Assembly (NCBI GenBank): GCA_903813345.2
Contig: CAIIXF020000003.1
Location: 20,848,931-20,912,930 of the forward strand
DNA length: 64,000 nt
Source: Owenia fusiformis
Taxonomy: Eukaryota; Annelida; Polychaeta; Sabellida; Oweniidae
Reading direction: 5' to 3'
This document shows, in pieces, positions 7,833-30,403 of this stretch. The notes under the pieces were generated by a model. It was not told the origin of the DNA. It searched no databases and saw only the letters and a list, made by a program, of their open reading frames with translations. The position numbers and the translations under genes were made by a program. Every line of letters begins with the position of its first letter. Position 1 is the stretch's first letter.

Positions 7833-8520
7833 TACGAGGGGTGATCCAAAAGTCTTGGACGCCCCGCTCTAACTTTGCTATTTTCTTATATAATTACACG
7901 AAACTTTCAGATAATAAAGACCAACATCTTAACAACTTTGTGTGTAAGTTTCAACATAAACTAATATATTTTAGCTACCTTTCTAAATACTTTTTGATAC
8001 CGGGTCCCTGCCACCCGGAACGGATTTAAATATAGCAAATCAAGTCACAACTGTTATAATATGGCAAATACTTTAGGTGCAGGTGCACAACCTAGCACCA
8101 GTCATGATATGAGAGAATTTCCGACTTTCAGTCTGAGTGTCATCTGCCATCATCATCTTCGCATATTAAGACCTACTTTTCAACATATTTTTTACGAATT
8201 TGAACACATTTTTCATACCTCTTTACCAATGAATGAAAGACATTTATGAAACAGCAATTGGCTATGTGATACAAATGCTACTGGAGTGCCACTCTAAACC
8301 TCATCCAATGAGTAAAAAACATTTTCTTTCAACCCTCCTTTCAACTTGGAGAAAAGGAAGAAAATCACACGGAGCCATATCTAGACTGTATCGTGCATAT
8401 TGAAGCTGCTCAATGTCAATAATAGTGAAAATATATTGTAGTATTCTTTGTTCCACTTTGATTTCTTTCATGTTCTGCATTTCAGCAGCCATCTTGGAGC
8501 AAAAATGACACCAAAATGAG
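7833..8520 (-). mobile_element. Mariner-like remnant, left part with transposase fragment
   Basis: The end TACGAGGGGTGATCCAAAAG (7833 on) is preceded by TA (7831-7832). It is matched in inverse at 30820, where TA also follows, as expected for Tc1/mariner. On the - strand, 8492-8301 encodes a fragment containing YSLDMAPCDFLPF, the degenerate form of the mariner transposase motif YSPDLAPCDFxLF that holds the last catalytic Asp. The reading frame is short and broken, so the copy is dead. The element is interrupted after 8520 by the giant TIR unit and resumes at 30413. Confidence 0.8.
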
Positions 8521-9475
8521 AGATCTGATTATTAGTCCCGAGCCCGACAAATGTTTTTCACAGAGCGGGATATAATAAATCACAGTTACACTGTCACGTA
8601 ATTTTATAGGGCTCGCGGGATAGTCGCAATTGCAAACACCTTTATCCCGTATGAGCACTTTGTAGCACTGAGCCTCGGGACAGTCAGTTTCTCAAACTCA
8701 CTGTCCCGTAATTTTTTTTTTGCAAACGACGGGATATAATTAATTGAGACCTGACATATCCCGGCGCTGGGTAAAAAAATTTGCTGCGGGATAAAGTGAT
8801 TTCAGAACTTGACTAATGCTGATCAAAGTATATGCTATCAAGCCATCACACATCTCTATGTAATTACCATACTATATTACCCTTGCAAAAAAATCCATTT
8901 TTCATGACCTCTTTGTAGATCAAAGTATATGCTATGAAGCCATCACACATCTATGTAATTACAATACTACATGTATATTACCCTTGCAAAAATTTTCATG
9001 ACCTTTTTGTACTGTATTATATCAACATCTGTCTTTTATTTTAAAAATGTTGCTAAAGTTTATTGGGAGGGGTGGCACCTACACACTTGATTCAAAGTGC
9101 TATCTGTTATGTGGGGGGGGGGGCATCTTCACACTTCACTCACACCATGGTCTAGAAGAATCACAACTGTCACAATTCCTCATTCCATCCATCTGGTATC
9201 ATTTAAATAGCCTTGAATATAATATGCAGTATGTACATAAATCCTTGTGTGACATCCTGTATGATTTATTATGCCTATTGCTGCATATGTCTTTCTATTT
9301 TTTAATCAGCGAATATATATGTATATAAATCCTGGTGAAGTAATGTGGTCATTCCTTAAGCCGTCTCATATCATTTATCATCCTAATTGTTCATATTCAA
9401 CAGCTCCTTGCAGCGAATTAAAGAAAAGTTGTTTTTCACGATAAATACTGGTGAAGTATTGTGGCAATTTCCTCG
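8521..9475 (+). repeat. Left long terminal inverted repeat
   Basis: This arm is inverse to 29562-30403. It contains repeated CGGGAT/ATCCCG words that could fold locally. An extra internal duplication of ~95 bases (CAAAGTATATGCTAT...CCTTGCAAAAA near 8825 and 8920) is absent from the right arm. Confidence 0.88.
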
Positions 9476-9576
9476 TGTCTATCTGGTTTTCTTTGTCATC
9501 CTAATTGTTTGCTGTACATTTCTGAGGACCTGAATAAATCAATAATAAAAACATTTATTAACAAGACACACAGTGA

Positions 9577-12332
9577 TAAATATCGCACTTTGAAGAGCAA
9601 ACTGGCCACCATGCAATTTATCCAGCATGGCCAAAACCTAATCAGACCTTGGCACTAGTCTGCTCTTGCATCTGTAAACATTTCAAGTTGACAAGGTTAG
9701 CGGTTTTCCTGCAATTTTGATGACAAGAATTGATTTGTAGTGTGGAACTTTGGGAAAATTTAGATGACATCGTTTGTGACCTAATTTGATGACCTTCGAC
9801 CTTGAAAATTTAACTTTTTCAGACCTCAGTAGGTGTTTTGTAATTAAGCTGACCTAAATTTAAATCCAAAATATCAATTTAGAAAATCAACTTTTTTGAC
9901 CTTTTCAAGGTCACTGAAGGTGAATGAAAGGTCAAATCTGAAATCTAAGGTCAGATTTGAACTTCTGAGAATTTGTAGATGTTTTAAAAAAAAAATTTGG
10001 TAAATTTGGAGCAAGTTGAAAAATTCAAAATGGCCGCCAAATTGAAAAATTCAAAATGGCCACCATGTAATTCAGCAAGCATACCCAAAACCTAATCAGA
10101 TCTTGGCAATAGTCTGCTCTTGCATCTGTAAAAATTTCAAGTTGAACGGATAAGTGGTTTTCCTGGAAATTTGATGACAAGATTTGTTGAAAAATTCAAA
10201 ATGGCCACCACGTAGTTTACCCAGCATGCCCTAAACCTAATGAGATATTGGCACTAGTCTGCTATTGCATGTGTAAAAATTTCAAGTTGAACAGGTTAGC
10301 GGTTTTCTTGGAATTTTGATGACAAGAATTGATTTGTAGTCTCAAACTTTGAGAAACTTGGATAACATCATTTGTGACCTAGTTTAATGACCTTGACCTT
10401 CGACCTTGAAAATTTAACTTTTTCAGACCTCAGTAGGTGTTTTGTAATTAAGCTGACCTAAATTTAAATCCAAAATATCAATTTAGAAAATCAACTTTTT
10501 TGACCTTTTCAAGGTCACTGAAGGTGAATGAAAGGTCAAATCTGAAATCTAAGGTCAGATTTGAACTTCTGAGAACTTGTAGATGTTTTTAAAAAAAAAA
10601 TTTGGTCAATTTGGAGCAAGTTGAAAAATTCAAAATGGCCGCCAAATTGAAAAATTCAAAATGGCCACCATGTAATTCAGCCAGCATACCCAAAACCTAA
10701 TCAGATCTTGGCAATAGTCTGCTCTTGCATCTGTAAAAATTTCAAGTTGAACGGATAAGTGGTTTTCCTGGAAATTTGATGACAAGATTTGTTGAAAAAT
10801 TCAAAATGGCCACCACGTAGTTTACCCAGCATGCCCTAAACCTAATCAGATATTGGCACTAGTCTGCTATTGCATGTGTAAAAATTTCAAGTTGAACAGG
10901 TTAGCGGTTTTCTTGGAATTTTGATGACAAGAATTGATTTGTAGTCTCAAACTTTGAGAAACTTGGATAACATCATTTGTGACCTAGTTTAATGACCTTG
11001 ACCTTCGACCTTGAAAATTTAACTTTTTCAGACCTCAGTAGGTGTTTTGTAATTAAGCTGACCTAAATTTAAATCCAAAATATCAATTTAGAAAATCAAC
11101 TTTTTTGACCTTTTCAAGGTCACTGAAGGTGAATGAAAGGTCAAATCTGAAATCTAAGGTCAGATTTGAACTTCTGAGAACTTGTAGATGTTTTTAAAAA
11201 AAAGAATTTGGTCAATTTGGAGCAAGTTGAAAAATTCAAAATGGCCGCCAAATTGAAAAATTCAAAATGGCCACCATGTAATTCAGCCAGCATACCCAAA
11301 ACCTAATCAGATCTTGGCAATACTGTACGCCCGGTATTATTCGCGTGCGATTAACTTTCGCGCTTTTCGCGATGGTGTTAAAATCGCGAAAAATTATCGT
11401 CGCGAAATTGCCAATTAAATCCCCGGGAATTTGTTTTTACCCGTGGCTCTGATGCATTTCGTCAACTTCTGATCCCTCCATTCCTACATGTAAGAAGAAC
11501 TACTGTAAGAAGAACTACAAAATGCATTTCGTTTTGTGTAAAACGTTTCGTCTAGTGTTATTGGGCGATAATTGGATGATTTCCACCAACATGTCTATTT
11601 TACGTTGGCTAGTCAGGCCAACTACTACCAATGGGCCTAGGCTCAATAATGACATCGACGATATTATAGAAACTGAAGTTCAAATTGCTAAAAATAACAT
11701 GAAGTCCAAGCCTGGAACATATAAAGTGTACAACGACGCAGAAAGGGCAAACATAGCCCGGCACGCACTTCTGAACTTGTGAAATTCGCGAAATTTAATA
11801 GCCGCGAAACCGTGTTTTCGCAAAATTCGCGAAATTAAAGCTCGCGAATAATACCGGGCGTACAGTAGTCTGCTCTTGCATCTGTAAAAATTTCAAGTTG
11901 AACGGATAAGTGGTTTTCCTGGAAATTTGATGACAAGATTTGTTGAAAAATTCAAAATGGCCACCACGTAGTTTACCCAGCATGCCCTAAACCTAATCAG
12001 ATATTGGCACTAGTCTGCTATTGCATGTGTAAAAATTTCAAGTTGAACGGATAAGTGGTTTTCCTGCAATTTTGATGACAAGATTTGTTGAAAAATTCAA
12101 AATGGCCGCCACGTAGTTTACCCAGCATGCCCTTAACCTAATCAGATCTTGGTACTAGTCTGCTCTTGCATCTGTAAAAATTTCAAGTTGAACAGGTAAG
12201 CAGTTATCCTGGAAATTTGATGACAAGATTTGGTTTATGTCCCGCCCGCCCGCACGCCCGCACACCCGCCCGCACGCCCGCCCAACAGCACAAGACGACG
12301 GCAATATAGCACTTTTTCAAAGTGCGATAAAA
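9577..12332. repeat. ~600-bp tandem repeat array flanked by an inverted motif
   Basis: Units beginning GACCTA(A/G)TTT(G/A)ATGACCTT recur at about 9778, 10376 and 10980, a period near 600. Each holds TGACCTT words, AAATTCAAAATGGCCGCC modules and an AACCTAATCAGAT module. The block opens with ATCGCACTTTGAA (about 9578) and closes with the inverse TTCAAAGTGCGAT before 12332, preceded by a CCCGCCCGCACG stretch. This looks like one non-autonomous element with an expanded core. Confidence 0.75.
11323..11865 (+). mobile_element. 543-bp TIR element inserted in the array, TA target duplication
   Basis: The TIRs are CTGTACGCCCGGTATTATTC and its inverse, flanked by TA (11321-11322 and 11866-11867). The uninterrupted site GGCAATAGTCTGCTC is present in the sister array copy near 10711, so the insertion is exact. 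Inside, 11522-11782 is an 86-codon open frame ending TYKVYNDAERANIARHALL, which looks like a captured or residual coding exon and is not recognised further. Flanking sequence is rich in TCGCG words. Confidence 0.88.
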
Positions 12333-12349
12333 ATGCATTAATGTTAACA

Positions 12350-13905
12350 CGGTATGTTACATGATATAACATTGAGTGACAGTGACAGAGTATGTTACAA
12401 GTTATGACAGTAGTAACAATATATGCTACAATGGATGACAGTGATTAACAGGGTATGTTACAAGATATGACAATGAGTGACATGGTATGTTACAAGATAT
12501 AACAGTGAGTGACACGGTATGTTACAACATATAACAGTGTGTGACAGGATATGACAGTAAGTAACATGGTATGCTACCACGTATGACAGTGACTGACAGG
12601 GTATGTTACAACATATGACATTGAGTGACACGGTATGTTAGTAGATATAACAGTGAGTGACAGGGTATGTTACAAGCTATGACAGTAAGTGACATGGTAT
12701 GCTACAACATATGACAGTGACTGACAGGGTATGTTACAACATATGACAGTGACTGACAGGATATGTTACAACATATAACATTGAGTGACATGGTATGTTA
12801 CAAGATATAACAGCGAGTGACAGGGTATTTTACAAGTTTTGACTAAGTGACATGGTATGCTACAACGTATGACAGTGACTGAGAGGGTATGTTACAACAT
12901 ATGACATTGAGTGACACGGTATGTTAGTAGACATAACAGTGAGTGACAGGGTATGTTACAAGCTATGACAGTAAGTGACATGGTATGCTACAACGTATGA
13001 CAGTGACTGACAGGGTATATTACAACATATGACATTGAGTGACACGGTATGTTACAACATATAACATTGAGTGACAGGGTATGTTACAAGCTATGACAGT
13101 AAGTGACATGGTATGCTACAACGTATGCTACAACGTATGACAGTGACTGACAGGGTATGTTATGACATATGACATTGAGTGACATGGTATGTTACCACAT
13201 ATAAGAGTGAGTGACAGGGTATGTTACAAGCTATGACAGTAAGTGTCATGGTATGCTACAACATATGACAGTGACTGACAGGATATGTTATAACATATGA
13301 CATTGAGTGACACGGTATGTTACAACATATAACAGTGAGTTACAAGGTATGTTACAAGCTATGACAGTAAGTGACATGGTATGCTACAACGTATGACAGT
13401 GACTGACAGGGTATCATATGTTATGACTTAGACATTGAGTGACACGGTATGTTACAACATATAACAGTGAGTGACATGGTATGTTACAAGATATGAAAGT
13501 GAGTGATGCGGTGATGATACAAAATATGGCAATGAGTGACAAGGTGTTAAAAGATCTGACAGTTAGTGATATGGTATATTATGAGGTATGACAGTACAAC
13601 ATTGTATGTAACATATGAAAGTGAGTCACATGAAATGTTACAAGTTACAACATTGAGTAATATGGTATTATACCACATCTGACAGTGAGTGACATATGTT
13701 ACGAGATCAGACAGTAAGTGACATTATATGTAACTAGATCAGACAGTAAGTGACATTATATGTTACTAGATATGACAGTAAGTGACATTATATGTTACTA
13801 GATCAGACAGTAAGTGACATTATATGTAACTAGATCTGACAGTAAGTGACATTATATGTTACTAGATATGACAGTAAGTGACATGGTATGTTCCATGATA
13901 TGACT
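12350..13905 (+). repeat. 32-bp minisatellite, block 1
   Basis: Degenerate units of the type GACAGTGAGTGACATGGTAT + GTTACAAGATAT repeat about 48 times, with local higher-order variation (CAGTGACTGACAGGG, ATTGAGTGACACGG). Open frames on either strand are by-products of the periodic sequence and are not genes. Confidence 0.93.
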
Positions 13906-14394
13906 TGTTAACTTAGGCATTTTTGAAGATTCTTGGCTCCAGAACTTAGAAGTAGTATTAGCTACTTAAATATGGTACCATACCATATCTATTTTTACTT
14001 GCTTTCATGTATGTATTTGAAGAAAATTCCTTTCATTGTAGCAGCACATCTATAAATGATGTTAATTTTAATTAATGGTTAAGAGATACAATATTTTGAC
14101 TTGTTTTTGTTTTCAATTGAATATCAGCAAGATGGACATTTTTTCAACCATGATTACAATCTGGGTTTTCAAACCAAAGCAATGCATTATAATTCTTTGA
14201 AAAATTGGAAATAGAGAGTCTGACTTTAAGTGACATTTTTAAAAGTAAAAGATACACTAAGATGTTTGGTCAGTATTTAATTGACATAATGCAGATCAGG
14301 AAAGACTTTATTTTTAAACAATAACTAGTTATTTTAAAATGTTCAAATGTGTCTCATAAGCCCAGATAGGGCTGGTTGTATGATATGATACAAA
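13906..14394. other. Unique spacer
   Basis: AT-rich, non-repetitive sequence between the minisatellite and the ~136-bp satellite. Nothing else was seen. Confidence 0.5.
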
Positions 14395-14792
14395 TGGTGT
14401 CCATTTTTCAAAATGGCCGCCTTCTACCAAAAGTGCCATTAGACAGTGTGCCATGCTTATAGTATCCACATACCAAATATGAACAAAATCGCTCCACTAC
14501 TTTTCGAGTTATAGTAAAATATGTTAAAATGACGGCCATTTTTTAAAATGGCCGCCTTCTATCAAAAGAGTCATTAGACAGTGTGCCATGCCTATAGTAT
14601 TCATATTCCAAATATGAACAAAATTGCTCCACTACTTTTCAAGTTATAGTAAAATACGTTAAAATGGCGGCCATTTTTCAAAATGGCCACCTTCTACCAA
14701 AAGTATCATTAGACAGTGTGCCATGCTTAAAGTATTCATATACCAAATATGAAGAAAATAGCTCCACTACTTTATGGCCACTTTTCAAAAAT
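14395..14792 (-). repeat. ~136-bp satellite, three copies
   Basis: Units starting CCATTTTTCAAAATGGCCGCC recur at about 14401, 14536 and 14671. Each includes ATTAGACAGTGTGCCATGCT and CAAATATGAACAAAAT. This is the same satellite as 26985-29440 but in the opposite orientation. Confidence 0.9.
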
Positions 14793-14794
14793 GA

Positions 14795-15235
14795 AAGTCA
14801 GTGACATGGTATGATACATGATATTACATTGAGTGCCATTGTATGTTACAAATATGATTGTAAGTGACATGGTATGTTTCAAGATATGACAATGAGTGAC
14901 ATGGTGTTACAAGATATGACAGTGAGTAACACAGTATGCTACATGATTTGACAGTGAGTTACGTAGTATGATCAAGATATGGCAATGAGTGACATGGTGT
15001 TATAAGATCTGACAGTGAGTGACATGGCATATTACAAGGTATGACAGTAAGTGACATGGTATGTTTCAAGATATGACAGTGAGTGACATGGTATGTATAA
15101 CAAATGCCAGTGACTGACATGGTATGTTACATGATATGACAGTCTGTGACATGGTATGATACATAATATGACAGTGTGTGACGTTGTATGTTACAAAATA
15201 TGACAGTGAGTGGCATGGTATGTAACAACAAGGCA
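14795..15235 (+). repeat. 32-bp minisatellite, block 2
   Basis: Same GACAGTGAGTGACATGG-type units as block 1. The block is bounded by the ~136-bp satellite on the left and the GTCACCACC element on the right. Confidence 0.9.
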
Positions 15236-15249
15236 TTAACATGACAAAA

Positions 15250-15879
15250 TGTCACCACCTAAAACAATTTGGTCAATTTAAAGCAAGTTGGAAAATACCT
15301 TTTGACCTTGAGAAGGTCATTGAAGGTCAAAGGTCAAATCTAAAGTCAGATTTGAACTTCTAAGAACTTGTAAAGTCAAATTTGAACTTTTGAAAAGATG
15401 TAGATGATTTTGAAAAAAAAAATTTAGTCAATTTGAAGCAAGTTGAAAACAGACCTTTTTGACCTTTTTTGACCTTGAGAAGGTCATTGAAGGTCAAATG
15501 TCAAATCTAAAGTCAGATTTGAAGGTCAAATGTCAAATCTAAAGTCAAATCTAAAGTCAGATTTGAATTTCTGAGAACATGTAGATGATTTTGGAAAAAA
15601 TTTAGTCAATGTGAAGCAAGTTGAAAAGACCTTTTTGACCTTGAGAAGGTCATTGAAGGTCAAATGTCAAATCTAAAGTCAGATTTGAACTTCTGAGAAC
15701 ATTTAGATGATTTAGAAAAAAACTGAAGTCAGTCTAAACAGTATTTGTTAAGTTATAGGAAGTTGTAAGAAATTGTTACAGACGCCGGACGCCAACCTCC
15801 AACCACCAACCGCCAACCACCAACCGCCGTCGCAAAAAACGGAGACCATAACAATATGTCACCACTATTGGTGGTGACA
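15250..15879. mobile_element. TIR element with TGACCTT core inserted in the minisatellite
   Basis: Ends are TGTCACCACC (15250 on) and the inverse GGTGGTGACA (to 15879). The core has three tandem units with AGGTCATTGAAGGTCAAATG. A GACGCCGGACGCC...AACCGCC segment and ACCATAACAATATGTCACCA lie near the right end. A shortened relative sits at 37081-37182 in gene C. Confidence 0.75.
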
Positions 15880-15884
15880 TAATA

Positions 15885-16790
15885 ATAAATGACAGTGAGT
15901 GACATGGTATGTCACATAATATGACAGTCTGTGACATGGTATGATACATGATATGACAGTGAGTGATGTGGTATGTTACAAGATATGACAGTGAGTGACA
16001 CAGTATGTTACAAGATATGAAAGTCTGTTACATGGTATGATACAAGATTTGACAGTGAGTGACATGGTTTGTGACAAGATATGACAGTCAGTGGAATGGA
16101 ATGATATAAGATATGACATTGAGTGACACAGTATGTTACAAGATATGACATTGAGTGACATATGTTATAAGATCAGACAGTAAGTGACATTGTATGTTAC
16201 AAGATATGACAGTCTGTGACATGGTATGATACATGATATGACAGTGAGTGACATGGTACGATACAAGATATGACAGTGAGTGGCATGGTATGTCACATGA
16301 TATGACAGTTTGTGACATTGAATGATACATGATATGACATTGTATGTTACAAGATATGTCAGTGAGAAACATGGTATGTTACAAGATATGACAGTGAGTG
16401 ACATGGTACGATACAAAATATGACATTGAGTGACATGGAATGTAACAAGATATGACAGTGAGTGACATGGTATGATACAAAATATGACATTGAGTGACAT
16501 GGAATGTAACAAGATATGACAGTGAGTGACATGGTATGATACAAAATATAACATTAAGTGACATGGTATGTTACAAGATATGACAGTGAGTGGCATGGAT
16601 TGTTACAAGGTATGACAGTAAGTGACACAGTATTTTACAAGATATGACAATGAGTTACACGGTGAGTTACGATATATGACAGTGAGTGACACGGTATGTT
16701 ACAAGATATGACAGGGGGTGACATGGTTTGACACATGATATGACAGTCAGTGATATGGTATGATACAAGATATGACATTGAGTGACAAAT
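15885..16790 (+). repeat. 32-bp minisatellite, block 3
   Basis: Continuation of the same minisatellite after the inserted element. The - strand frames that read as repeated CHILxHSMS-like peptides are translation of the 32-bp period through all three frames, not protein genes. Confidence 0.92.
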
Positions 16791-17141
16791 ACAGTAATCA
16801 GTCCTAAACTGATTAGCTGAATTGACTGATTTGGCTTGAAATCTGTAGCCTAGACAAGATTTATCGGGATGACTGCCCAACGGCCTATGCATTAACCAGC
16901 AAACTGATTACTATTTAGCACCCAAGTGTCTGATAATAAGTCATCAAAATTTAGGGCCCTTACCTCTGTCTGTTGTTTGAAAAATAAATCAGTCTGACTC
17001 TCTGTGATAAAGTCGTGTGTTGAAAAACTGGATTATACATTCTTACTGCACCATCCCACTTTTTCCATCCTTGCTCATCCTGAAGCAGATAATACAAAAT
17101 GCATCAGCATATGTCTAATAATAATTAATAAACAAGCAGAG
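16791..17141. other. Short unique spacer
   Basis: It contains AATCAGTCCTAAACTGATTA near 16796 with a nearby partial inverse (CAAACTGATTACT). No gene was seen. Confidence 0.4.
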
Positions 17142-17366
17142 CAGGCCCGTAGCCAGGGGGTGGGAGCAGGGGGTGGGAGCGGAGGGAGGGGCAGCTCCAC
17201 TCCAGGCAGAAATTCTTTTAAAATCATGTAGTTTTTTCTTGTTCACTATTCTGAGCACTTTTCGCAAGATTTTTTGCCAAAACTGTCAAAAAGCTCCCCC
17301 CTGCCTAGGAAAAAAGTCCCCTTTGGTAAAACCACTCCCCCTAGGTAAATCCTGGCTACGGGCCTG
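17142..17366. mobile_element. Short hAT-like MITE
   Basis: CAGGCCCGTAGCCAGG at 17142-17157 is exactly inverse to CCTGGCTACGGGCCTG at 17351-17366. The interior is G-rich then C-rich and non-coding. The termini are of the common CAGRGGCGTAGCCAGG type of hAT elements. I could not find a clean 8-bp duplication. Confidence 0.75.
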
Positions 17367-17841
17367 CAGGGTATACAATGATCATTAATGAGCAATCATA
17401 TGCATGCATAATTGGTAATTGTCTCAGTCACATGATATAAAGTTTATACTATTATCAAGTTACAACCCTTACAATTTATACAAGTCAAACATATACAAAC
17501 ATGAAATCAAGCCAATGTTATATACATGAGAACTTGCTTCTTGTTTCACACCGAGACATCTGGTCTCAGTTTCCAGGAACGTAGTCATGACGTCATGATA
17601 AAACATTCGATGATTATCGTCTGGTCCGGAAAATATTTGTGAAAATGCATTTCATATGATGTATTTTTATCGTTTGTGCAAATACATGTGAAGAAGAATG
17701 TCAAATAAAGCTGAAATGATGTGTTTAAAATGGGACCCTGTATTAATTTATTACCCGGCCAGATGTATAAAAAATCTGTACCCGGAAGTTGAGCTTGATG
17801 TAGAATATTGCTGTCACTCTGAACTATCGCGTCTATTGGAC

Positions 17842-18045
17842 CATAGGCGTTGCCAGGGGAGTATAATCAAACCCATAACCAATAAAAATAGAATCATGAG
17901 ATAAAAGAAGAAAATAACTTTAAAATGCTTTTTATGATTTTCTAGCTTAAGTTGCATCAATTTTGAAAAATTCTTAGACACAAATTGGCTTGCTTTATGC
18001 CACGATCGCACCCCCCCCCCTGTCTGAAAACTGGCTAAGCCCCTG
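17842..18045. mobile_element. 204-bp hAT-like MITE
   Basis: The element starts CATAGGCGTTGCCAGG and ends CTGGCTAAGCCCCTG, imperfect inverses. ATTGGAC is present directly outside both ends (17835-17841 and 18046-18052), a 7-8 bp target duplication. The interior is non-coding and ends in a poly-C run. Confidence 0.7.
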
Positions 18046-18052
18046 ATTGGAC

Positions 18053-19979: not shown

Positions 19980-19988
19980 GATTATTTC

Positions 19989-21785
19989 GGCTTTGTATAA
20001 AAAATCTCCTACCTCATACCCACCTACGTGGGACATAACAGTCATTGAGGGGTTCAATTTCAAAGATTTTTAAATCTCAAAATAACTCTAATTATTAACA
20101 TTTCTACAATTCTGGCTTATTTTATAACTAGACGGATGACAGATCCATAAATAAAGGCATATAGGTGCATTGTAATGTGACATGACCCGAGGGCGTTCCA
20201 GGGGAATAACTAACTAACGACCGTGGGTATAAGCCAGATAAAGAAATTGAAAGAAAGTGTGCTAAAATCGAACCCAGCTGGGCTGTTGTAGCAACTTGCT
20301 ATCAAGGGTCGTTACAAATGCATCTATAATTCATCAAACTAAGATCTTTAAAATTGAACCCTTCAAAGACTGTATCATGTCCAACATACGTGGGTAGGTG
20401 GGTATGACGTACAGGGGCGTAGGAAGGTGTAAATGCAACACTACGCCAAAAATCCCGCCAAAAAAATATGAAACAATTGTGTCAATATTCTATAGCAAAA
20501 CGCCTATATTATGCTTGTAAAACGTCATTTTATGGTAACAGAGATTTTAAGCTTGCAATGTTTTTCACAAACTAAATGTGAACGGAAATACTTAAGCGAT
20601 GCATTTATATGGGCGATTGGGCATACGTATAGGTTGGCGTTTCGATTTTATATGCAAGCTTTAAATCCCTGATACCTTTTTAATGTGCTTTAAAATGTTC
20701 GAATGATTTTCATCATTTAAAATCACCTTGGAAAGTCTATCTTTTAAATCACGACACAAATCATTCTCACTTTGCTTATGTCTCGAACGATTGAGACGAC
20801 CAATTTCCAAAAAACAATTAGAGATTTTTTAATCATTTTCGAATAATTGAATTAAGATATACAGATATATAGTATTGTCTGATTCCATCGTGTACCATGC
20901 AATACAATACGTACAGATTAAAGAAACTAGTTTGATCAATTGATATAAAGAAACGCATTCGTGATCAATGAAACAAATAAATACACCCACCACAAAGGTC
21001 AAATCGAGGTCAACGTGACTTAGGGGGTGCCAAAAATGTTATAAAACAAGAATCTATTATTTTTCAAATGAAAAAAATAGGTAATCGCTTTTCTAGAACT
21101 GAAATCAATGGAACGTGTAATTGAATAATCAGCATTTTCAAGTTGTTTTTGTCTTTAACATCCATATTTCAAAAAGTACTACCAATAACAATTAGTGATT
21201 TAGTAAGAAAATAGATAATTGTTGACTTAACTATAATTTCGTGTCTATGATTTTGCATAGCAACGGAATATAAATCGATAGTGAAATTGAAAAATTGGGG
21301 AGAATAAAAAAAATGTACATCTAAATTTAAAGAGGTTCATCATTATAATTATATGATACCATAGTTTGCATAAGCATTACGGAAAATGCAGAAAAAATGT
21401 CAAAGGTATTTATCAAGTAGTTTTTGAAAAAAAAACAGTTTTCCTCTCAAATTCGTGAAGAGAACGCGATTCACGAATATTTGGCAAAATTGTATTCATA
21501 AGACATTCAATAGTGGCTCGATTTTCATGAAATAAAGCATGTTGCTAAGGGAATTCAATCTGTTAAATGATATTTTCCAGACAGACCAATAATGATATGG
21601 TATCCACAAAACATTTCTTTAGGCTAGTGTGCTCGAGATTACTTTTACAATTTATGAACAATGAGAAAATATGACTAAAGAACATAGGAAAATTCTTTTT
21701 TATTCTCACTTTTCAACACTACGCACTGGCGTTTTGGCGTACATTGTTCCTACGCCACTGACGTAGGTTTTTTTTATACAAAGCC
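19989..21785. mobile_element. Mutator-like MITE with 9-bp target duplication, itself interrupted
   Basis: GGCTTTGTATAAAAAA at 19989 is inverse to the sequence ending at 21785. The inverted arms extend about 100 bases (CATACCCACCTACGTGGGAC; GGGTTCAATTT...AAAGAT). GATTATTTC flanks both ends exactly (19980-19988 and 21786-21794). Removing the nested 20412-21760 insertion plus one ACGTA leaves a ~443-bp element. No coding content. Confidence 0.8.
20412..21760. mobile_element. 1349-bp TIR element nested in the Mutator-like MITE
   Basis: Termini are CAGGGGCGTAGGAAG and GTTCCTACGCCACTG. ACGTA is duplicated on both sides (20407-20411 and 21761-21765). The interrupted arm of the host MITE confirms the original site as ATGACGTAGG. 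The ends look hAT-like, but only 5 bases are duplicated. The interior is AT-rich and has no convincing frame. Confidence 0.75.
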
Positions 21786-21794
21786 GATTATTTC

Positions 21795-22921
21795 AAAATC
21801 ATGCAGTTTTTCCAACTGCCAGATCGAGGAGCTAACAACATGAACAAGGGGGGCCCAGAGTCACATTCTACAAAAAAATTTGAAGCCCATTTATAGATAA
21901 TATTGCCTAAACAGTTGTAAAAGGCCAAGAAGTCCAAGTTTCGCCAAACAAAAGTCCAGTCTTGGAGGCCCAGCAAAAAATTTTGGCCAAATATGTTTTG
22001 GGGCCCTTGAAAACTTTTCTGGGCCCACTCAAGGGGGGTATCTACTAGCCCCCTGGACCCGCACTTTCACAGTTCTAAAATGTGAACTTACCAAAACTTG
22101 GCTAAGAATTGGATCTTTAACCCCCCCCCCCCCACAGAATAGGCCTATAGAAAGTGCAATGCAAGTGCCTGCCTGGGCTGCCACTGAAGAACTTGAATAT
22201 TTCTCTGACTCCCAAAACTAAAGTCTGTATCACAAGATAGTCTAGACCGTAGGCTACTTAGTCGTCTAGACACTGCCGTCTGCCTAACATTCCTATCTTT
22301 GAATCAATCTCTAGATCATATTCGCAGACATTCTGGCGGGACGTGAGAGATCTCGGCATGTCAAACTTGAATTGTTATATTCAGAACGAATTAACATTTT
22401 AGGCTTGCTTTTTAACAGATCAACTAAAAAATCTTACAATAAATTATTTTTTGATAATTATATAAAATCATAACTAATACTCAGAGACTCTATTAGGAGG
22501 TTTATTCACCATTTAATTTTTCTCTCTCTTGTTTTCGAAAGATTATGTTACACATATAGTTTGACGTCTAGACTACCCCATAGCTACAAAAATTCAACGT
22601 TTCTGAAAAGTACTTCTTCAACATTTTACAATTTAAAACTGTAAACTATCCACTCAGTGGGAAGAAGCACTACCTTAGACATGATAGGAGCTGCAGTATT
22701 AGTCGTACGACGACGACTAAACTTCCAAGGTAGGCTAGTCAATTTCTTTGCTGTTTTTCATTTTTTGCCAATTTTGAACTTCAATTTGGGGACTTTTCTT
22801 GAACTTGTGGATGTCTCAAATAGATCTACAGGCCTGTCAACCTGGGAGCACCTAAATAAGTAACTTACAAATGTTGAACATCTTCCTTCAAATTGTGAAC
22901 ACCTGGTCCAAATCTAAACAC
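21795..22921. other. Gene-free stretch inside the giant element
   Basis: Low-complexity C-runs near 22120 and a diverged copy of the 18180 sequence near 22260. No gene supported. Confidence 0.4.
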
Positions 22922-22929
22922 CTTGGTCC

Positions 22930-23416
22930 TAGTGTTGTCGCGATTAATCCATACATCGCGATATACATGTACATCACCAAAGCTGATTCTGGCGATGCAT
23001 CGATGTCTGAAACAAAACATCGATGTTTTTGAAAAAAATTTATTTGCTAAAAATCACCCTTTCTTATCTTATTTTGACGCAAATCGCTTACCTTTCTGAT
23101 GTCTTATTTCATTTTCCAATGTTTTCTGATATTCTTTCGCTTTAACACTGTTTTAGCTAGTCGCAATGAACCATTAATCTAAAAAAAATTTACTTTACTT
23201 TCATTTCACCATTACTATAGAAGTTCCCGGATGTACCAGCGACCAGCGTATTCTTATTAATTTGTTCTGTTTGGTATTTTAGTGCATTAGCATTCAGGAT
23301 TTCAGTGCACTTTTCTCGGACTTTTTCTCGATGTACATCGTGATGTGCATCAATGTTTACTAACTGAAAATTGCCGATGCATCGATGTACGATAAACGCA
23401 CATCGTGACAACACTA
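22930..23416. mobile_element. 487-bp non-autonomous hAT element with perfect 8-bp target duplication
   Basis: Begins TAGTGTTGTCGCGAT and ends ATCGTGACAACACTA. CTTGGTCC stands on both sides (22922-22929 and 23417-23424). Sub-terminal CATCGATGT/ACATCGATGC words are repeated in both orientations, as is usual for hAT ends. Non-coding. Confidence 0.88.
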
Positions 23417-23424
23417 CTTGGTCC

Positions 23425-23964
23425 AAATTTCGACGGGGGAGACAAAAAATTTAAAAAAAATGCATGACATGCAATTTGCATAAAAAATCTGAATGAAATG
23501 TGCACGATTTTTTCGGCACTCCTCTTTTGATGTTTTGCCTTTCATTTCAAGTTGGATGTTCTTCTATTGAACCATTGATCATGTTTGCTCCTGTAATTAT
23601 TCACTTCTTCACCTCTTTAAATTGTGATTCAAATTGGTTGATCAAATTTTCGGACTTTGACCTCAAATTCGAATATAAATATTTTTTTAGAAAAATACTG
23701 ACTCATTATTATATTTTTAAAGGTGTTTCAAATAAAGTGAAATGAACCCAAAATCAGCTAAAATTATGCGATGTCGTAAAATGGCGTGACTGGAATATGA
23801 TGCAATCAGCTGTGTCATGTCATGACACATCTGTCATGTCAAAAAAAACGGCTTGACTTCAGTAAATGCATGACAAATACGCATATAGTATTAAATAGTA
23901 AGATCAACGCGATGCAAGCATTTATTACCTATTCAAAGGCACGACTGATCTGATTATTCACGAT
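23425..23964. other. Spacer without recognised features
   Basis: AT-rich, with short CATGTCATGACA-type palindromes near 23815-23840. No gene. Confidence 0.4.
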
Positions 23965-24370
23965 GAAACAGAAATACTGAATTCAACTGCTTCCTTTATT
24001 TTTACCAAATATTCAGCTGCCTCTATACCGATTAATGGTGGTTTTAATGGAAAGTAACGAATAAATAAGATGAAATATGAAAAATGTGTACACCTGGAAA
24101 TCAGCCATTTGTTCACCTTCATTGGGAAATCTCCGGGTACTTTAAGGAATAAAGAATCATGTATCATTCTATATTGTAAATATAAAAGCATGAGTGTATG
24201 TACTAACCCGTACACATAATGCACAAAGGCGAAGCCTGATTGCATTATCAGAATGGGTTAGTACATACACTCATGCTTTTATATTTACAATATAAGCATG
24301 GCCACTGATGATAGGAACATTTGGAGAAATATTAGCATAAAGTAAGCAGCTGAATTCAGTATTTTAATTT
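23965..24370. repeat. Palindromic element with perfect 40-bp inner stem
   Basis: TATATTGTAAATATAAAAGC...ACTAACCC (about 24170-24210) is inverse to GGGTTAGTACATACACTCAT...AATATA (about 24253-24293). Outer arms AATACTGAATTCAACTGCTT (23974) and AGCAGCTGAATTCAGTATT (24345) also pair. It is probably a MITE; no target duplication was identified. Confidence 0.75.
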
Positions 24371-25156
24371 AAGCTGTTACGATTACCAAGTGATGTATAT
24401 TATGCAAATAAAGGCTTTCTAAAAATCAGACACAGACTTTGAAATGGGTAATGCAAGCATACAAACATGTACTCACATACCTTATGAATAAAAACACATC
24501 ATCCCATATACCCCTGAGTGTGATTCATTTGAAGATGGCTTTGGAAAAGTCGGTTCCTGGGGTCTGTTCAGACTGCGGTAACATTGAAATTGTAAATCGT
24601 GTCAAAACCACCGTTGACACACTGAACAAAATGCCAATGCACATGTTTTTCCCTGTTTAATATTCCTGGGAATATTTCACAAACTTTTTGTCTATTCTGC
24701 AATAAAAACTCTAGGCTGAGACCAGCTCTAGGTACAAAACAAAAGAAATATGTTGTTTATTTGATTCTAGTTAACATCCTAGGCCCCTGTGAATTTTTAG
24801 ATCACATGGCATTTCAAAAAAATTCCCAATTTGAAAGGCTTATTGCTTTTTACAAACACCTGGCATTCGAAGAACATTTGGTTTAAAAAATTTGTTTCAA
24901 AAGTCATATTTCAGTGTTTCAAAAGTCAAATTCGATGGTTTATTATTCAAATCTTATTACGTCTGTCCGTCCGTCTGGGCAATAACTCAAATACCGTTGG
25001 CCCGATTTTGTTCATATTTTGTACACATATACCCTATGGGGGTAGAATTCTGCTTAAAAGTCGATTTTCAAAATGGCTGCTCATTTAAAAATGGTGGCCA
25101 TTTTAGTGCCAATTTTACAGTAATCTAGGTGCAATATGTAAAACTGTAATAGCAAT
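24371..25156. other. Spacer with weak satellite similarity
   Basis: 24945-25105 contains GTCTGTCCGTCCGTCTGGG, CCCGATTTTGTTCATATTTT and AAAATGGCTGCTCATTT, a diverged relative of the ~136-bp satellite. A 73-codon frame at 24439-24660 is not supported by anything else. Confidence 0.4.
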
Positions 25157-25158
25157 TA

Positions 25159-26956
25159 CTATAAGTACGCTATTGGTGCACACTCCCGTTTCACAGGAAA
25201 CAATGAAATGTGACGTTATGAAAAATGTTCTCGCAATTTGACGAACATTCGACGACGTCATTATTCCTTCAAAATTCACTGAAGCATGAACATAAAATTA
25301 TGAAAATGACACATTACATTTTTATTATCTACATTCTATCTTAGGAATGAATCGATGAAAAGGTATTTCAAAACAAACCAAGCAACTTCACAAGCAAAAC
25401 ATCGATTTAAAATTGAATAAACATGGAAACCAAGACAAATATTCCGAACTATAAAATTGAAAACTTCGTACCAATCTTCCATATTTGATGAATTTATATG
25501 CAAATCCTACAAGATGTAATCATTAATAATATCAATAGATAACCATTACATCAAAATGACATGTGCATCTTTATTTCAAATGAGAATTCATCATGATTGA
25601 AAGTTATGATTTGTAGAGAATTTGTTCTGTTAACTTTTGATGAGGGACTCCTCAATCGCGCGCTTTTTACGTTTTCTCGCGTATTATAACCTATAGCGCG
25701 GAAATGTCTATATTCTTTAAGACTCAAAGAATACGGTATATGTTCATGAAGAAGTATGGTTTACCCTATCATTTGGTACCACTGCAATGTATGGAACATG
25801 CGCAGGCAAATAAAAAAGCTATCAAATTATTTCAATAAAATCTGTCCTCGCTAATTCCGATGAAAGGGGACACAAAGTCCCCATTTTGTGTGTAAAATGA
25901 CGTCAAAACGGTCTATGCACATTTAGTTCAGACTCTGGTATCATTCATTTTAAAAGGTGAAAAACTAAAATAGAGTCTCTAATTTTTTAATACATTATAA
26001 TCACCTGATGCGCAGCTGAGAAAAATATTTTTTAGGACTCAAAATATTAAAATATTCACACTCGCATAGATTGAAAATGCCCAATTGATTTTAACGGGGA
26101 TTTTTATCACGGAGGCTTCACTTGAACATTTTTCAATATTTTATAGAATTTACGAGGGTTATATGTCAACCAGGTCATCAAATATACTTTTTTGTAGAAC
26201 AAACATCTTCTTTATTGTTGACCATAAAAATTTGAGATGATTTATTGCAATTTAAAAAAACTTAGATGGCTTAGAACATGTCTACCGTGGTAAAAAATAA
26301 CGTAATTTTGACGAGGCTTCACTCCTGATATTCGTACAAAATCCATCGTGGCTGATACGTTTACATCTGAATCACTGATAAGTATAGTTTCAGTATGTTC
26401 GTGAAACTTTTCCGGATCTAACAATATAACAACTGTATGACAAACTGCTATATAACTCACAAAATCTACATTTAAGTACCATACGCAGGCTGAATAAGTC
26501 AGAGTTGAACACGAGTCACTCACAATTACGATTGCGACAATAGCTATTGTGACGTCATACGCTGTTCGTTATTTGTAAATATTTATGCATAGAATTGATG
26601 ATCCATGAAATAGGGTATTATCCTGAAAATATCATAAACATTGATGGCACAGTTAAAAAGATATATACTTTTACATACTACATGGCCATTTCGTTTCGTT
26701 CCTCGTTGAAACGTTGAACACGCCTTTTAGGGTGTATTTATTCAATTGAGAGCTATTTCGAAGGGCTGTGAATTGAATAACCATAGAGGATATTTCATAA
26801 AATTCAGTTCGAATAATTGCCTTATATAATAGCAAGAAGGATATATAAAAATTATTATAAATTATGTCGAAATAAATGTTAATCGAAGACCGAGATCTTT
26901 ATAGACGTCTTAATTATATTGGCGATTTCAAATGTGTACCAATAGCGTACTTATAG
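25159..26956. mobile_element. 1.8-kb TIR element, TA flanks
   Basis: CTATAAGTACGCTATTGGT at 25159 is inverse to ACCAATAGCGTACTTATAG ending at 26956, and TA borders both ends. The terminal inverted repeat is about 19-26 bases. A 93-codon - strand frame at 26523-26242 is the longest inside and resembles nothing I know. Confidence 0.65.
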
Positions 26957-26984
26957 TAAATATGTTTCAAATGTAAAAAATATA

Positions 26985-29440
26985 TATAGGACATTAATAA
27001 AGCTAGAATGTAGATATGAAAGAAGCAAATGACAGCCATCTTGAAAAATGGCGGCCTTTACTCGTTATTTTACGATTTTTGCTGTAACTTGAAACGTAGC
27101 GGAGCGATTTTGTTCATATTTGGTATGCAGGGTTCGAACTTAACTTTTTAGACTGGTAGTGTATGTGGATACTATAAGCATTGCACACTGTCTAATGACA
27201 CTTTTGGTAGAAGGCTGCCATTTTGAAAAATGGCGACCATTTTTACTTTTATAACTATTAATTGAAAAGGAGTGGAGCGATTTTGTTCATATTTGGTATG
27301 TGAATACTATAAGCATGGCACACTGTCTAATGACACTTTGGGTAGTAGGCGACCATTTTGAAAAATGGCTACCATTTTTACTTTTATAACTGTAAATTGA
27401 AAAGTAGTGGAGCGATTTTGTTCATATTTGGTATGTGAATACTATAAGCATGGCACACTGTCTTATGACACTTTGGGTAGAAGGCGACCATTTTGAAAAA
27501 TGGCGACCATTTTTACATTTTTAGGACATTAATAAAGCTAGAATGTAGATATGAAAGAAGCAAATGACAGCCATCTTGAAAAATGGCGGCCTTTACTCGT
27601 TATTTTACGATTTTTGCTGTAACTTGAAACGTAGCGGAGCGATTTTGTTCATATTTGGTATGCAGGGTTCGAACTTAACTTTTTAGACTGGTAGTGTATG
27701 TGGATACTATAAGCATTGCACACTGTCTAATGACACTTTTGGTAGAAGGCTGCCATTTTGAAAAATGGCGACCATTTTTACTTTTATAACTATTAATTGA
27801 AAAGGAGTGGAGCGATTTTGTTCATATTTGGTATGTGAATACTATAAGCATGGCACACTGTCTAATGACACTTTCGGTAGTAGGCGACCATTTTGAAAAA
27901 TGGCTACCATTTTTACTTTTATAACTGTAAATTGAAAAGTAGTGGAGCGATTTTGTTCATATTTGGTATGTGAATACTATAAGCATGGCACACTGTCTTA
28001 TGACACTTTGGGTAGAAGGCGACCATTTTGAAAAATGGCGACCATTTTTACATTTTTTACTATAACTCAAAAAGTAGTAGAGCGATTTTGTTCATATTTT
28101 ATATGTGAATACTATAAGCATGGCACACTGACTAATGACACTTTGGGTAGTAGGCGACCATTTTGAAAAATGGCGACCATTTTTACTTTTATAACTATAA
28201 ATTGAAAAGGAGTGGAGCGATTTTGTTCATATTTGGTATGTGAATACTATAAGCATGGCACACTGTCTAATAACACTTTTGGTGGAGGAGACCATTTTGA
28301 AAAATGGCGACCATTTTTACATTTTTTACTATAACTCAAAAAGTAGTAGAGCGATTTTGTTCATATTTTTATATGTGAATACTATAAGCATGGCACACTG
28401 TCTAATGACACTTTGGGTAGTAGGCGACCATTTTGAAAAATGGCGACCATTTTTACTTTTATAACTATAAATTGAAAAGTAGTGGAGCGATTTTGTTCAT
28501 ATTTGGTATGTGAATACTATAAGCATGGCACACTGTCTAATGACACTTTGGGTAGTAGGCGACCATTTTGAAAAATGGCGACCATTTTTACATTTTTTAC
28601 TATAACTCAAAAAGTAGTAGAGCGATTTTGTTCATATTTTATATGTGAATACTATAAGCATGGCACACTGTCTAATGACACTTTGGGTAGTAGGCGACCA
28701 TTTTTACTTTTATAACTATTAATTGAAAAGGAGTGGAGCGATTTTGTTCATATATGGTATGTGAATACTATAAGCATGGCACACTGTCTAATAACACTTT
28801 TGGTGGAGGAGACCATTTTGAAAAATGGCGACCATTTTTACATTTTTTACTATAACTCAAAAAGTAGTAGAGCGATTTTGTTCATATTTTTATATGTGAA
28901 TACTATAAGCATGGCACACTGTCTAATGACACTTTGGGTAGTAGGCGACCATTTTGAAAAATGGCGACCATTTTTACTTTTATAACTATAAATTGAAAAG
29001 TAGTGGAGCGATTTTGTTCATATTTGGTATGTGAATACTATAAGCATGGCACACTGTCTAATGACACTTTGGGTAGTAGGCGACCATTTTGAAAAATGGC
29101 GACCATTTTTACATTTTTTACTATAACTCAAAAAGTAGTAGAGCGATTTTGTTCATATTTTATATGTGAATACTATATGCATGGCACACTGTCTATTGAC
29201 ACTTTGGGTAGTAGGCGACCATTTTGAAAAATGGCGACCATTTTTACATTTTTTACTATAACTCAAAAAGTAGTAGAGCGATTTTGTTCATATTTTTATA
29301 TGTGAATACTTTAAGCATGGCACACTGTCTAATGACACTTTGGGTAGTAGACGACCATTTTGAAAAATGGCGACCATTTTTACTTTTTTAACTATAAATT
29401 GAAAAGTAGTGGAGCGATTTTGTTCATATTTGGTAAATAA
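26985..29440 (+). repeat. ~136-bp satellite array with higher-order duplications
   Basis: About 18 units of GAGCGATTTTGTTCATATTT...GCATGGCACACTGTCTAATG...CCATTTTGAAAAATGGCGAC. A ~533-bp block starting AGGACATTAATAAAGCTAG at 26989 is repeated at 27522. A ~521-bp block at 28240 recurs at 28761. Each unit contains a CCATTTTGAAAAATGG-type palindrome. Confidence 0.93.
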
Positions 29441-29561
29441 ATCTTATTTGCTTATTTCAGGATGTATGGCATGGGTAATCAGCATGTCAAAAACATATAG
29501 ATAGAATATGGTGGAATAACAGCAGGGAATAGATGGAAAAACAGATTGCATGTGGAATTGC
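29441..29561. other. Junction between satellite array and right terminal repeat
   Basis: Unique sequence with ACAGCAGGGAATAGATGG. No feature. Confidence 0.4.
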
Positions 29562-30403
29562 CGCAATACTTCACCTGTATTTATCGTAAAAAACAACTTT
29601 TATTTAATTCACTGGAAGGAGCTGTTGACAGATGAACAATTAGGATGATAAATGATATGAGATGGCTTGAGAAATGACAACATTACATCACCAGGATTTA
29701 TATACATATATATTAGCTGATTAAAAAATAAAAAGACATATACAACAAAGGCATAATATATGATACAAGATGGCGCACAAGGATTTATGTACATACTACA
29801 AATCATATTCATAGATACTTAAATGATACCAGATGGAATGATGATGTGTGACAGTTGTGATTCTTATAGACCATGATATGAGTCAAGTGTGGAGATGCCC
29901 CCTCCCCCCACACAAACAATAGCATTATGAATCAAGTGTGTACATGCCACCCCTCCCAATAGACTTTAGCAACATTTCAAAGATTAAAGACTAATGTTGA
30001 TATAATTCAGTACAATGATGAAAAATGGAAATTATTTGCAAGGGTAATATAGTATGGTAATTACATAGAGATGTGTGATGGCTTGATAGCATATACTTTG
30101 ATCAGCATTAGTCAAGTTCTGAAATCACTTTATCCCGCAGCAAATTTTTTTACCCAGCGCCGGGATATGTCAGGTCTCAATTAATTATATCCCGTCGTTT
30201 GCAAAAAAAAAATTACGGGACAGTGAGTTTGAGAAACTGACTGTCCCGAGGCTCAGTGCTACAAAGTGCTCATACGGGATAAAGGTGTTTGCAATTGCGA
30301 CTATCCCGCGAGCCCTATAAAATTACGTGACAGTGTAACTGTGATTTATTATATCCCGCTCTGTGAAAAACATTTGTCGGGCTCGGGACTAATAATCAGA
30401 TCT
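29562..30403 (-). repeat. Right long terminal inverted repeat
   Basis: Inverse copy of 8521-9475. Landmarks are CCGCAATACTTCACCTGTAT (29562 on), CTCCCCCCACACAAAC near 29905, and TTTATCCCGCAGCAAATTTT near 30130. It is near-perfect toward the outer end. Confidence 0.88.

What the first reader, a model, noticed from the sequence alone, without database searches (positions are those of the whole stretch)
8521..30403. A 21.9-kb unit with long near-perfect TIRs and an exact 9-bp target duplication
Seen: AGATCTGATTATTAG... at 8521 and its inverse at 30403, each bordered by CAAAATGAG. Outer arms are almost identical over ~370 bases. Known: 9-bp duplications and long TIRs mark Mutator-like elements; foldback elements also have long repeat-filled arms. 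Inferred: a very large non-autonomous element that moved as one piece, carrying arrays and older nested transposons. A unit this size without visible transposase would be unusual.
Basis: partly seen in the sequence, partly recalled or inferred. Interest (0 to 1): 0.78.

Follow-up and report, generated by a model that had tools for sequence, protein, structure and literature searches.

The report
Giant noncoding jumping-gene family
A 22,000-base stretch with no recognisable gene is a real mobile DNA element from a family of giant siblings, and one 38,000-base sibling with the same ends carries a possible engine: a huge open gene joining a kinase, a DNA helicase and a transposase-like domain.

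Summary
Confirmed. Window 8521-30403 has 385-bp end arms 99.2% identical and an exact 9-bp duplication. The 498-Mb host genome holds 28 inverted pairs of such ends, 25 of them spanning 10.9-38.0 kb. Of 27 pairs tested, 25 have exact 8-9-bp duplications, against 0 of 702 swapped flanks. Our joined flanks match an empty target copy over 1,008 ungapped bases (98.7%) with one 9-mer; junction-spanning empty sites were found for 7 of 23 pairs. The unit moved as one piece.

No significant protein domain was found in 95 scanned frames of our copy. One 38,030-bp relative with the same ends holds an open 3,104-codon frame: kinase, RecQ helicase and a weak MULE-like DDE region. Its C-terminal third has no second match in the genome. 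I propose it as transposase source; this is inferred, and the MULE match is below Pfam's cut-off. Our copy is best called a giant nonautonomous, foldback-armed, MULE-like element: a new variant of a known kind. The host may be the annelid Owenia fusiformis (inference).

The parts
8512..8520 (.). left 9-bp target duplication CAAAATGAG
8521..8905 (+). left outer terminal inverted repeat (terminus AGATCTGATTATTAGTCCCGA)
   Evidence: 99.2% to the right arm; 49 matches for the first 370 bp in the genome
8918..9491 (+). left inner inverted repeat
   Evidence: 85.5% to 30103-29536
9598..11322 (+). direct repeats of roughly 600 bp containing 145-bp units
12381..13904 (+). 32/64-bp tandem array; further blocks at 14791-15228 and 15889-16787
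   Evidence: also in the four siblings read and in the 38-kb relative
14389..14776 (+). 135-bp tandem array, left side
   Evidence: inverted match to parts of 27161-29442 at up to 87.8% over about 385 bp
16800..20411 (.). unique core part 1, no gene recognised
   Evidence: 98% to C10:27.4; partial 93% block to C6:35.5; no overall codon-phase bias
20412..21761 (.). nested 1.35-kb insertion with CAGGGGCGTAGGAA-type inverted ends, absent from the siblings aligned here
21762..25156 (.). unique core part 2, no gene recognised
25157..26958 (.). nested insertion of about 1.8 kb, absent from sibling C10:27.4
27161..29435 (+). 135-bp tandem array, right side, inverted relative to the left one
29536..30103 (-). 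right inner inverted repeat
30018..30403 (-). right outer terminal inverted repeat
30404..30412 (.). right 9-bp target duplication CAAAATGAG
7831..30822 (.). target: an older repeat whose own roughly 200-bp ends (7831-8027 / 30822-30625, 79.8% inverted) flank the insertion; empty copies exist elsewhere

Best explanation
The 21.9-kb unit is a giant nonautonomous DNA transposon with foldback-like arms (outer inverted repeats plus inverted 135-bp arrays). It inserted as one piece into a repeat and made a 9-bp staggered duplication (shown). It belongs to a family whose larger members span 10.9-38.0 kb and share the same terminus (shown); the copies read in full also share the subterminal arrays. 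I found no transposase gene in it. The proposed source of transposase in trans is a 38,030-bp relative (G000:C12:29017515-29055544) with the same ends. That relative has an open 3,104-codon frame with a protein kinase, a RecQ helicase with RQC domain, and a C-terminal MULE-like DDE region (frame, kinase and helicase shown; DDE region weak; role inferred). Proposed route: the DDE domain recognises the shared ends and cuts and pastes with an 8-9-bp stagger, and the RecQ helicase resolves the long inverted arms during excision or repair (both inferred). The members without the gene keep both ends and subterminal arrays, while the coding middle was lost and replaced (inferred from patchy backbone matches on either side of the coding region).
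For:: 28 inverted pairs of ends; 25 of 27 tested have exact duplications of 8-9 bp, against 0 of 702 swapped controls; junction-spanning empty sites for 7 of 23 pairs; our empty site, 1,008 ungapped bp at 98.7%, with one 9-mer; arm identity within 25 pairs is 94.4-100%, 24 of them at 98.2% or more; no significant domain in 95 frames of our copy; no overall codon-phase bias; 3,104-codon frame; PF00069 E 4.6e-36; NCBIfam recQ_fam 262 bits against a cut-off of 219.8. PF10551 E 0.0078 (whole protein), 0.0017 and 4.1e-4 (fragments cut after the first hit). D2451, D2528, H2552 and E2642 in MULE-like order (my reading); the 38-kb element matches members without the gene over about 3.2 kb at each end (right up to 93%, left about 80-91% in pieces).
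Against: The MULE match is below Pfam's curated cut-off (17-21 bits against 27.6), and the genome-wide PF10551 search at E 0.001 did not list this locus among its 8 hits. A profile comparison with this genome's MULE proteins was not significant (probability 1.8, E 0.027). A Cys-Cys-His-His finger-like motif that I see before the DDE region was not recognised by Pfam. The C-terminal third has no second copy in the genome, and none of the five copies read in full holds a tblastn match to the frame. Inside the 38-kb element a 172-bp inverted repeat at 75% (8431-8601 / 32780-32620) brackets the genes, so a nested element is not excluded. The 38-kb element has no close empty site: 21 of 30 other matches cross the junction, by 17-30 bases, at 69-82% identity. 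No expression or transposition was tested and no structure was predicted.
Confidence: 0.66

Rival explanations
1. The giant elements are moved in trans by the ordinary small MULEs of the same genome (Rehavkus/Phantom-like, 586-601 aa).
For: Intact MULE frames exist, with FLYWCH and MULE domains in both proteins scanned and a sub-threshold PHD match in one; foldback-like arms and 8-9-bp duplications.
Against: The ends of the three loci read (GGTTCCTAGTCAACTCGGACCC and similar, 16-bp repeats by eye) bear no resemblance to AGATCTGATTATTAGTCCCGA. None of the 8 MULE hits lies inside a pair of this family.
Confidence: 0.13
2. The kinase-RecQ-DDE frame is only a passenger (a captured gene or a nested element) in the 38-kb unit. 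The true transposase is extinct in this individual or lies in an assembly gap.
For: Single copy; no tblastn match in five copies read in full; an inner 172-bp inverted repeat at 75% brackets the genes; many nonautonomous families outlive their autonomous partner (general knowledge); G000 has gaps and withheld stretches.
Against: The frame is long and uninterrupted, contains a DDE-like region and lies between short backbone segments shared with a member without it (8305-8738 and 29720-29847, 94-96%). The inner 75% repeat also occurs in those members, so it looks like family backbone. The outer arms of the 38-kb unit are 99.8% identical over the 500 bp compared.
Confidence: 0.18
3. Misassembly, segmental duplication, or two short independent elements that happen to face each other.
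For: Two short paired-end elements (190 bp and 86 bp) with their own 9-bp duplications exist; six of the 40 near-complete arms are unpaired.
Against: Empty target copies continuous across the junction with one 9-mer; 25 of 27 pairs with matching duplications against 0 of 702 swaps. Two independent insertions would not share one duplication.
Confidence: 0.01
4. A decayed virus-like giant element (Polinton/Maverick type) with degenerate genes.
For: Size of 11-38 kb and long inverted repeats.
Against: Duplications are 8-9 bp, not 6 bp (the 6-bp value is recalled). No integrase, polymerase B or capsid domain among 95 frames of our copy, the 3,104-aa frame or 41 further frames of the 38-kb relative.
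Confidence: 0.02

Closest known systems
Tm1 Mutator/Foldback family of root-knot nematodes (PMC3169594; abstract, Results part 1 of 3 and Discussion part 1 of 2 read)
   Same: 9-bp duplications, composite inverted repeats with internal tandem repeats, mostly noncoding members, short MITE-like derivatives, and a single element coding for a MULE-domain transposase
   Different: The Tm1 elements described in the parts read are about 1-3 kb with a 496-aa transposase; here most paired members span 11-28 kb and the candidate coding element is 38 kb with a 3,104-codon frame
Rehavkus / Phantom MULEs of animals (PMC6446971; passages and section 8 read)
   Same: 9-bp (Phantom 8-10-bp) duplications; inverted repeats of 26-400 and 18-613 bp in its table; minisatellites inside; Rehavkus is known from insects and annelids
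   Different: PHD or FLYWCH finger plus MULE; the word helicase does not occur in that paper's main text. Rehavkus/Phantom-like MULEs also occur in this genome with different ends
KolobokH (PMC9587614; passages read)
   Same: DNA transposon that joins a RecQ helicase to a DDE transposase
   Different: Kolobok makes TTAA 4-bp duplications; RecQ lies downstream of the transposase; KolobokH found only in fungi (a red-algal Kolobok has RecQ on the other strand); the word kinase does not occur in its main text
Drosophila FB/NOF foldback elements (recalled, no call)
   Same: Long arms filled with tandem repeats, 9-bp duplications
   Different: Smaller, with a different protein
Pack-MULEs and other large DNA elements (PMC6431247; abstract and section 5 read)
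   Same: Nonautonomous MULEs with filler between the ends
   Different: That section says none of the Pack-MULEs in the cited survey exceeded the 7-kb full-length element, most being 1-2 kb. It also names 16-20-kb CACTA elements with genes in a red alga, and 100-200-kb cargoes moved in artificial constructs, so size alone is not unprecedented

Membership tests
Mutator-like (MULE) superfamily | 8-11-bp target duplication | tested here: met
   15 of 27 nine bp, 10 of 27 eight bp, 2 of 27 none
Mutator-like (MULE) superfamily | long terminal inverted repeats (common, not universal) | tested here: met
   385 bp outer plus about 570 bp inner arm
Mutator-like (MULE) superfamily | MULE DDE transposase in an autonomous relative | tested here: inconclusive
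   PF10551 E 0.0078 on the whole protein, 0.0017 and 4.1e-4 on two fragments, all below the curated cut-off; hhalign against MULEs of the genome not significant; not listed by the genome-wide PF10551 search
Foldback elements (structural class) | long inverted arms containing tandem repeats | tested here: met
   inverted 135-bp arrays inside the outer arms in our copy; 135-bp arrays near both ends in the four other copies read
Rehavkus/Phantom | PHD or FLYWCH finger in the transposase (typical, not universal for Phantom) | tested here: not met
   no PHD or FLYWCH hit at E 0.5 in the 3,104-aa protein, none at E 10 in the fragment before the DDE region
Kolobok | TTAA target duplication | tested here: not met
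   duplications are 8-9 bp of varied sequence
Polinton/Maverick | 6-bp duplication, integrase, polymerase B and capsid genes (recalled) | tested here: not met
   8-9-bp duplications; no such Pfam domain in the frames scanned
Pack-MULE | captured host gene fragments | tested here: inconclusive
   no significant Pfam domain in 95 frames of at least 45 aa; captured noncoding DNA was not tested

The most novel reading that the evidence does not exclude
A previously undescribed transposon lineage in which one 38-kb element encodes a kinase-RecQ helicase-DDE fusion (with ubiquitin-hydrolase-like and GDSL-hydrolase frames) and drives a fleet of 11-28-kb satellites without that gene, 'giant MITEs'. 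The built-in RecQ helicase would let long foldback-armed DNA be mobilised well above the size usual for nonautonomous MULEs.
Probability: 0.42. Interest if true: 0.85.

Novelty: new variant of a known kind. Interest (0 to 1): 0.72.

Why it matters
A review states that natural DNA transposition becomes much less efficient above about 6 kb of cargo (PMC6431247, section 5), while naming a few larger cases. Here is a family that appears recently mobile (24 of 25 pairs with arms 98.2% identical or more), in which 24 of 28 paired copies span 11-28 kb, and a 22-kb copy is shown to have inserted as a single piece. If the kinase-RecQ-DDE gene moves them, it would be a transposase with a built-in helicase for large, hairpin-prone DNA, and a concrete gene for an ordinary excision or integration assay. 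It also shows how large, complex tandem arrays can be scattered through a genome by transposition.

Tried and rejected
Assembly error, chance inverted repeat, and two independent short elements: rejected by empty sites and the swapped-flank control. Hidden gene in our copy: 95 of the 99 frames of 45 aa or more listed for 9500-12380 and 16800-27160 (4 left out as repeats of others) gave nothing better than E 0.008 in Pfam; frames in the arms and in the 12381-16800 and 27160-30403 arrays were not scanned. Codon phase of substitutions: 33/27/44 against a close sibling, 75/62/64 and 57/53/51 against two diverged members. This pools the whole aligned core, so exons in different frames would average out; it is weak evidence alone. 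Rfam: nothing over gathering scores in the window. MULE PF10551 in the genome: 8 matches, none inside a pair of this family. Relatives of the C-terminal third in IMG/VR: none confirmed. The empty site of C1:37.26 on small contig C485 could be another haplotype, but matches are 80-91% in pieces and stop 339 bp right of the junction, so it is left open. Structure prediction was not used: its stated rule does not list loci from the fetch from genomes. Literature: searches for a MULE joined to RecQ or kinase, or for giant noncoding MULEs, listed nothing matching. Listings were capped (15 of 25, 12 of 62) and the library holds open-licence papers only. One search (host genome) listed 8 of 1,248 papers, none relevant.
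Full report
OBSERVATION. AGATCTGATTATTAG begins at 8521 and its reverse complement ends at 30403, each bordered by CAAAATGAG. The outer arms match over 385/386 bp with 2 mismatches and 1 gap. A second inverted pair lies further in (8918-9491 / 30103-29536, 85.5%), and inside it 135-bp arrays face each other (14389-14776 against parts of 27161-29442, up to 87.8% over about 385 bp). 32-bp arrays lie at 12381-13904, 14791-15228 and 15889-16787.

A FAMILY, NOT A SINGLETON. The window lies on contig C3 of a 498-Mb genome. The first 370 bp gave 49 matches (40 of 78 candidates scored). Forty are near-complete arms, forming 17 opposed pairs including ours, with six arms unpaired; nine are a short internal repeat. 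The 21-bp terminus with up to 3 mismatches gave 79 sites, against 2 for the reversed-pattern control, and added nine large pairs and two short palindromic elements of 190 and 86 bp. That is 28 pairs in all. Three are small (2.7 kb, 190 bp, 86 bp); the other 25 span 10.9-38.0 kb. Counts are lower bounds, since not all candidates were scored.

TARGET DUPLICATIONS. I read flanks for 27 of the 28 pairs (the right flank of C9:32.64 was not fetched). 25 of 27 have an exact duplication at the same terminus: 15 of nine bp and 10 of eight bp. The two failures are C8:16.3, whose right end is truncated, and C2:16.97, where the copies differ. Swapping flanks between elements gave 0 of 702 combinations with 8 bp or more; the longest were one of 7 and one of 6. 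Arm identity within 25 pairs (the truncated pair and the two palindromes left out) is 94.4-100%, and 24 of 25 are at 98.2% or more.

EMPTY SITES. Our insertion lies in a repeat. Joining the flanks and removing one 9-mer gives a sequence found intact elsewhere: 220 bp at 100% on C2, and 97-99% at three more places. With longer flanks, the C2 copy aligns over 1,008 ungapped bases at 98.7% with CAAAATGAG once at the junction; a second copy on C12 aligns over 963 columns at 96.6% with 14 gap columns. Across 23 joined sites (7, 11, 5; only 40 candidates scored in each), 7 had junction-spanning matches: ours, C7:38.2, C6:1.55, C1:37.26, C6:35.5, C12:18.27 and C5:12.9. For the 38-kb element a separate search gave only distant matches: 21 of 30 besides its own flanks cross the junction, by 17-30 bases, at 69-82%. 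For our copy this settles that the 21.9-kb unit arrived as one piece.

CONTENT OF OUR COPY. The longest stop-to-stop frame in the element is 145 codons and lies in a tandem array. Of 99 frames of 45 aa or more in 9500-12380 and 16800-27160, 95 were scanned; the best Pfam E-value was 0.008. Substitutions against a close sibling (6,908 bases aligned) and two diverged members (4,388 and 4,155 of 7,007) show no clear phase bias: 33/27/44, 75/62/64, 57/53/51. This pools the whole core and is weak evidence alone. The core is shared with siblings in long blocks: 98-99.7% with C10:27.4, 93-99% with C7:23.4, and 85-99% in shorter blocks with the two diverged members. Two inserts (20412-21761, about 25157-26958) are absent from the siblings that align there and are common repeats elsewhere, so they are later additions. 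The four other copies read (C10:27.4, C7:23.4, C6:35.5, C9:32.64) contain the same 135-bp and 32-bp arrays in varying number and order, with 135-bp arrays near both ends, frames of at most 156 codons, and no tblastn match to the large frame described next. The remaining paired copies were read at their ends only.

A CANDIDATE ENGINE. One pair, C12:29017515-29055544 (38,030 bp), has the same terminus, a 9-bp duplication CATAATTTC, arms 99.8% identical over the 500 bp compared, and 32-bp and 135-bp arrays. About 3.2 kb at each end matches members without the gene: the right end up to 93%, the left about 80-91% in pieces. Its middle holds an uninterrupted 3,104-codon frame: protein kinase 259-544 (PF00069 E 4.6e-36), DEAD and Helicase_C domains, RecQ zinc-binding and RQC. 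NCBIfam recQ_fam scores 262 bits over its cut-off of 219.8. Kinase and helicase motifs look complete (VAIK, HCD, DFG; GSGKS, DEAH, QIGRAGR; motif meanings recalled). The C-terminal third matches the MULE domain weakly: E 0.0078 for the whole protein, 0.0017 and 4.1e-4 for shorter pieces cut after the first hit, always below the curated cut-off. The genome-wide PF10551 search did not list it. D2451, D2528, H2552 and E2642 stand in a MULE-like order (my reading). Profile comparison with this genome's MULEs aligned the same region but was not significant. On the same strand upstream are a frame with a ubiquitin-hydrolase start (PF00443 E 3.3e-6, over cut-off) and one with a possible ubiquitin-hydrolase C-terminal part (best PDB match USP46, E 0.23, not significant). 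A GDSL-hydrolase frame lies on the other strand (PF00657 E 5.5e-8). The C-terminal third has one match in the genome, itself. Short backbone segments shared with a member without the gene lie on both sides of the coding region (8305-8738 and 29720-29847, 94-96%). Against this, an inner inverted repeat (8431-8601 / 32780-32620, 75%) also brackets the genes, though its sequence recurs in those members too.

MECHANISM. Shown: single-piece insertion of our copy, 8-9-bp staggered duplications, shared ends, and an intact large frame in one member. Inferred: the DDE domain acts on the shared ends in trans; members without the gene arose by loss and replacement of the middle; the RecQ helicase helps with long inverted arms. 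The typical MULEs of the genome (three loci read: frames of 586-601 aa, FLYWCH plus MULE in the two scanned, foldback-like arms of 16-bp repeats, 8-9-bp duplications) have unrelated ends and are a less likely source.

COMPARISON. Tm1 of root-knot nematodes is the closest published system in logic (PMC3169594; abstract, Results part 1 and Discussion part 1 read). Rehavkus/Phantom share duplications, long arms and minisatellites (PMC6446971; passages and section 8). KolobokH joins RecQ to a DDE transposase but makes TTAA duplications (PMC9587614; passages). A review reports that the surveyed Pack-MULEs did not exceed 7 kb and that transposition efficiency drops over 6 kb of cargo, while naming larger CACTA elements and artificial cargoes (PMC6431247; abstract and section 5). 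My searches listed no description of a MULE joined to RecQ and kinase, within capped listings of an open-licence library.

HOST. Twelve contigs of 32-62 Mb make up about 477 of the 498 Mb (lengths). This would suit the annelid Owenia fusiformis (505.8 Mb, 12 chromosome-scale scaffolds; PMC9977687, passages). This is inference from size and number only.

On rereading the calls I narrowed 'noncoding members' to the copies actually read, corrected the asymmetric-end count, and added the results against the reading (miss, inner repeat, weak junction matches).

Noticed in passing
window 53604-54481 and 62950-63818: A second long inverted repeat: 880-bp arms 95.6% identical, about 10.2 kb apart, with arms starting ACTCCCCTCCATAAGTTTGGCAACC; no target duplication seen in the bases printed.
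   Followed up: partly
G000:C12:5756800-5764800 (L080), C80:9100-17100 (L081), C12:4478000-4486000 (L082): Intact MULE frames (586-601 aa; FLYWCH and MULE in L080 and L082, sub-threshold PHD in L080; L081 is 99% identical to L080) between foldback-like arms of 16-bp repeats, with 8-9-bp duplications: Rehavkus/Phantom-like elements.
   Followed up: partly
window 20412-21761: Nested 1.35-kb element with CAGGGGCGTAGGAA-type ends; more than 20 copies at 94-99% in the genome.
   Followed up: partly
G000:C485:36600-37800 (L088): Empty homologue of the C1:37.26 insertion on a 62-kb contig; possibly the other haplotype, which would make a 25-kb insertion polymorphic, or a paralogue.
   Followed up: partly
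G000:C10:33506661 and C10:33516425 (L041, L042): Two arms in the same orientation 9.8 kb apart with nearly identical left flanks, which looks like a tandem duplication of one arm and its flank.
   Followed up: no
window 2989-3623 and 42863-43248: Homogeneous tandem arrays outside the element: 158-bp unit x4 (98%) and 53-bp unit x7 (96%).
   Followed up: no
family subset with asymmetric ends (C1:37.26, C1:47.56, C2:26.7, C5:13.78, C6:19.84, C7:2.85; C6:35.5 and C12:29.68 differ): Six of the eight asymmetric-end pairs tested have 8-bp rather than 9-bp duplications, against 4 of the 17 other pairs apart from the two palindromes (11 nine bp, 2 none); the cause is unknown.
   Followed up: no
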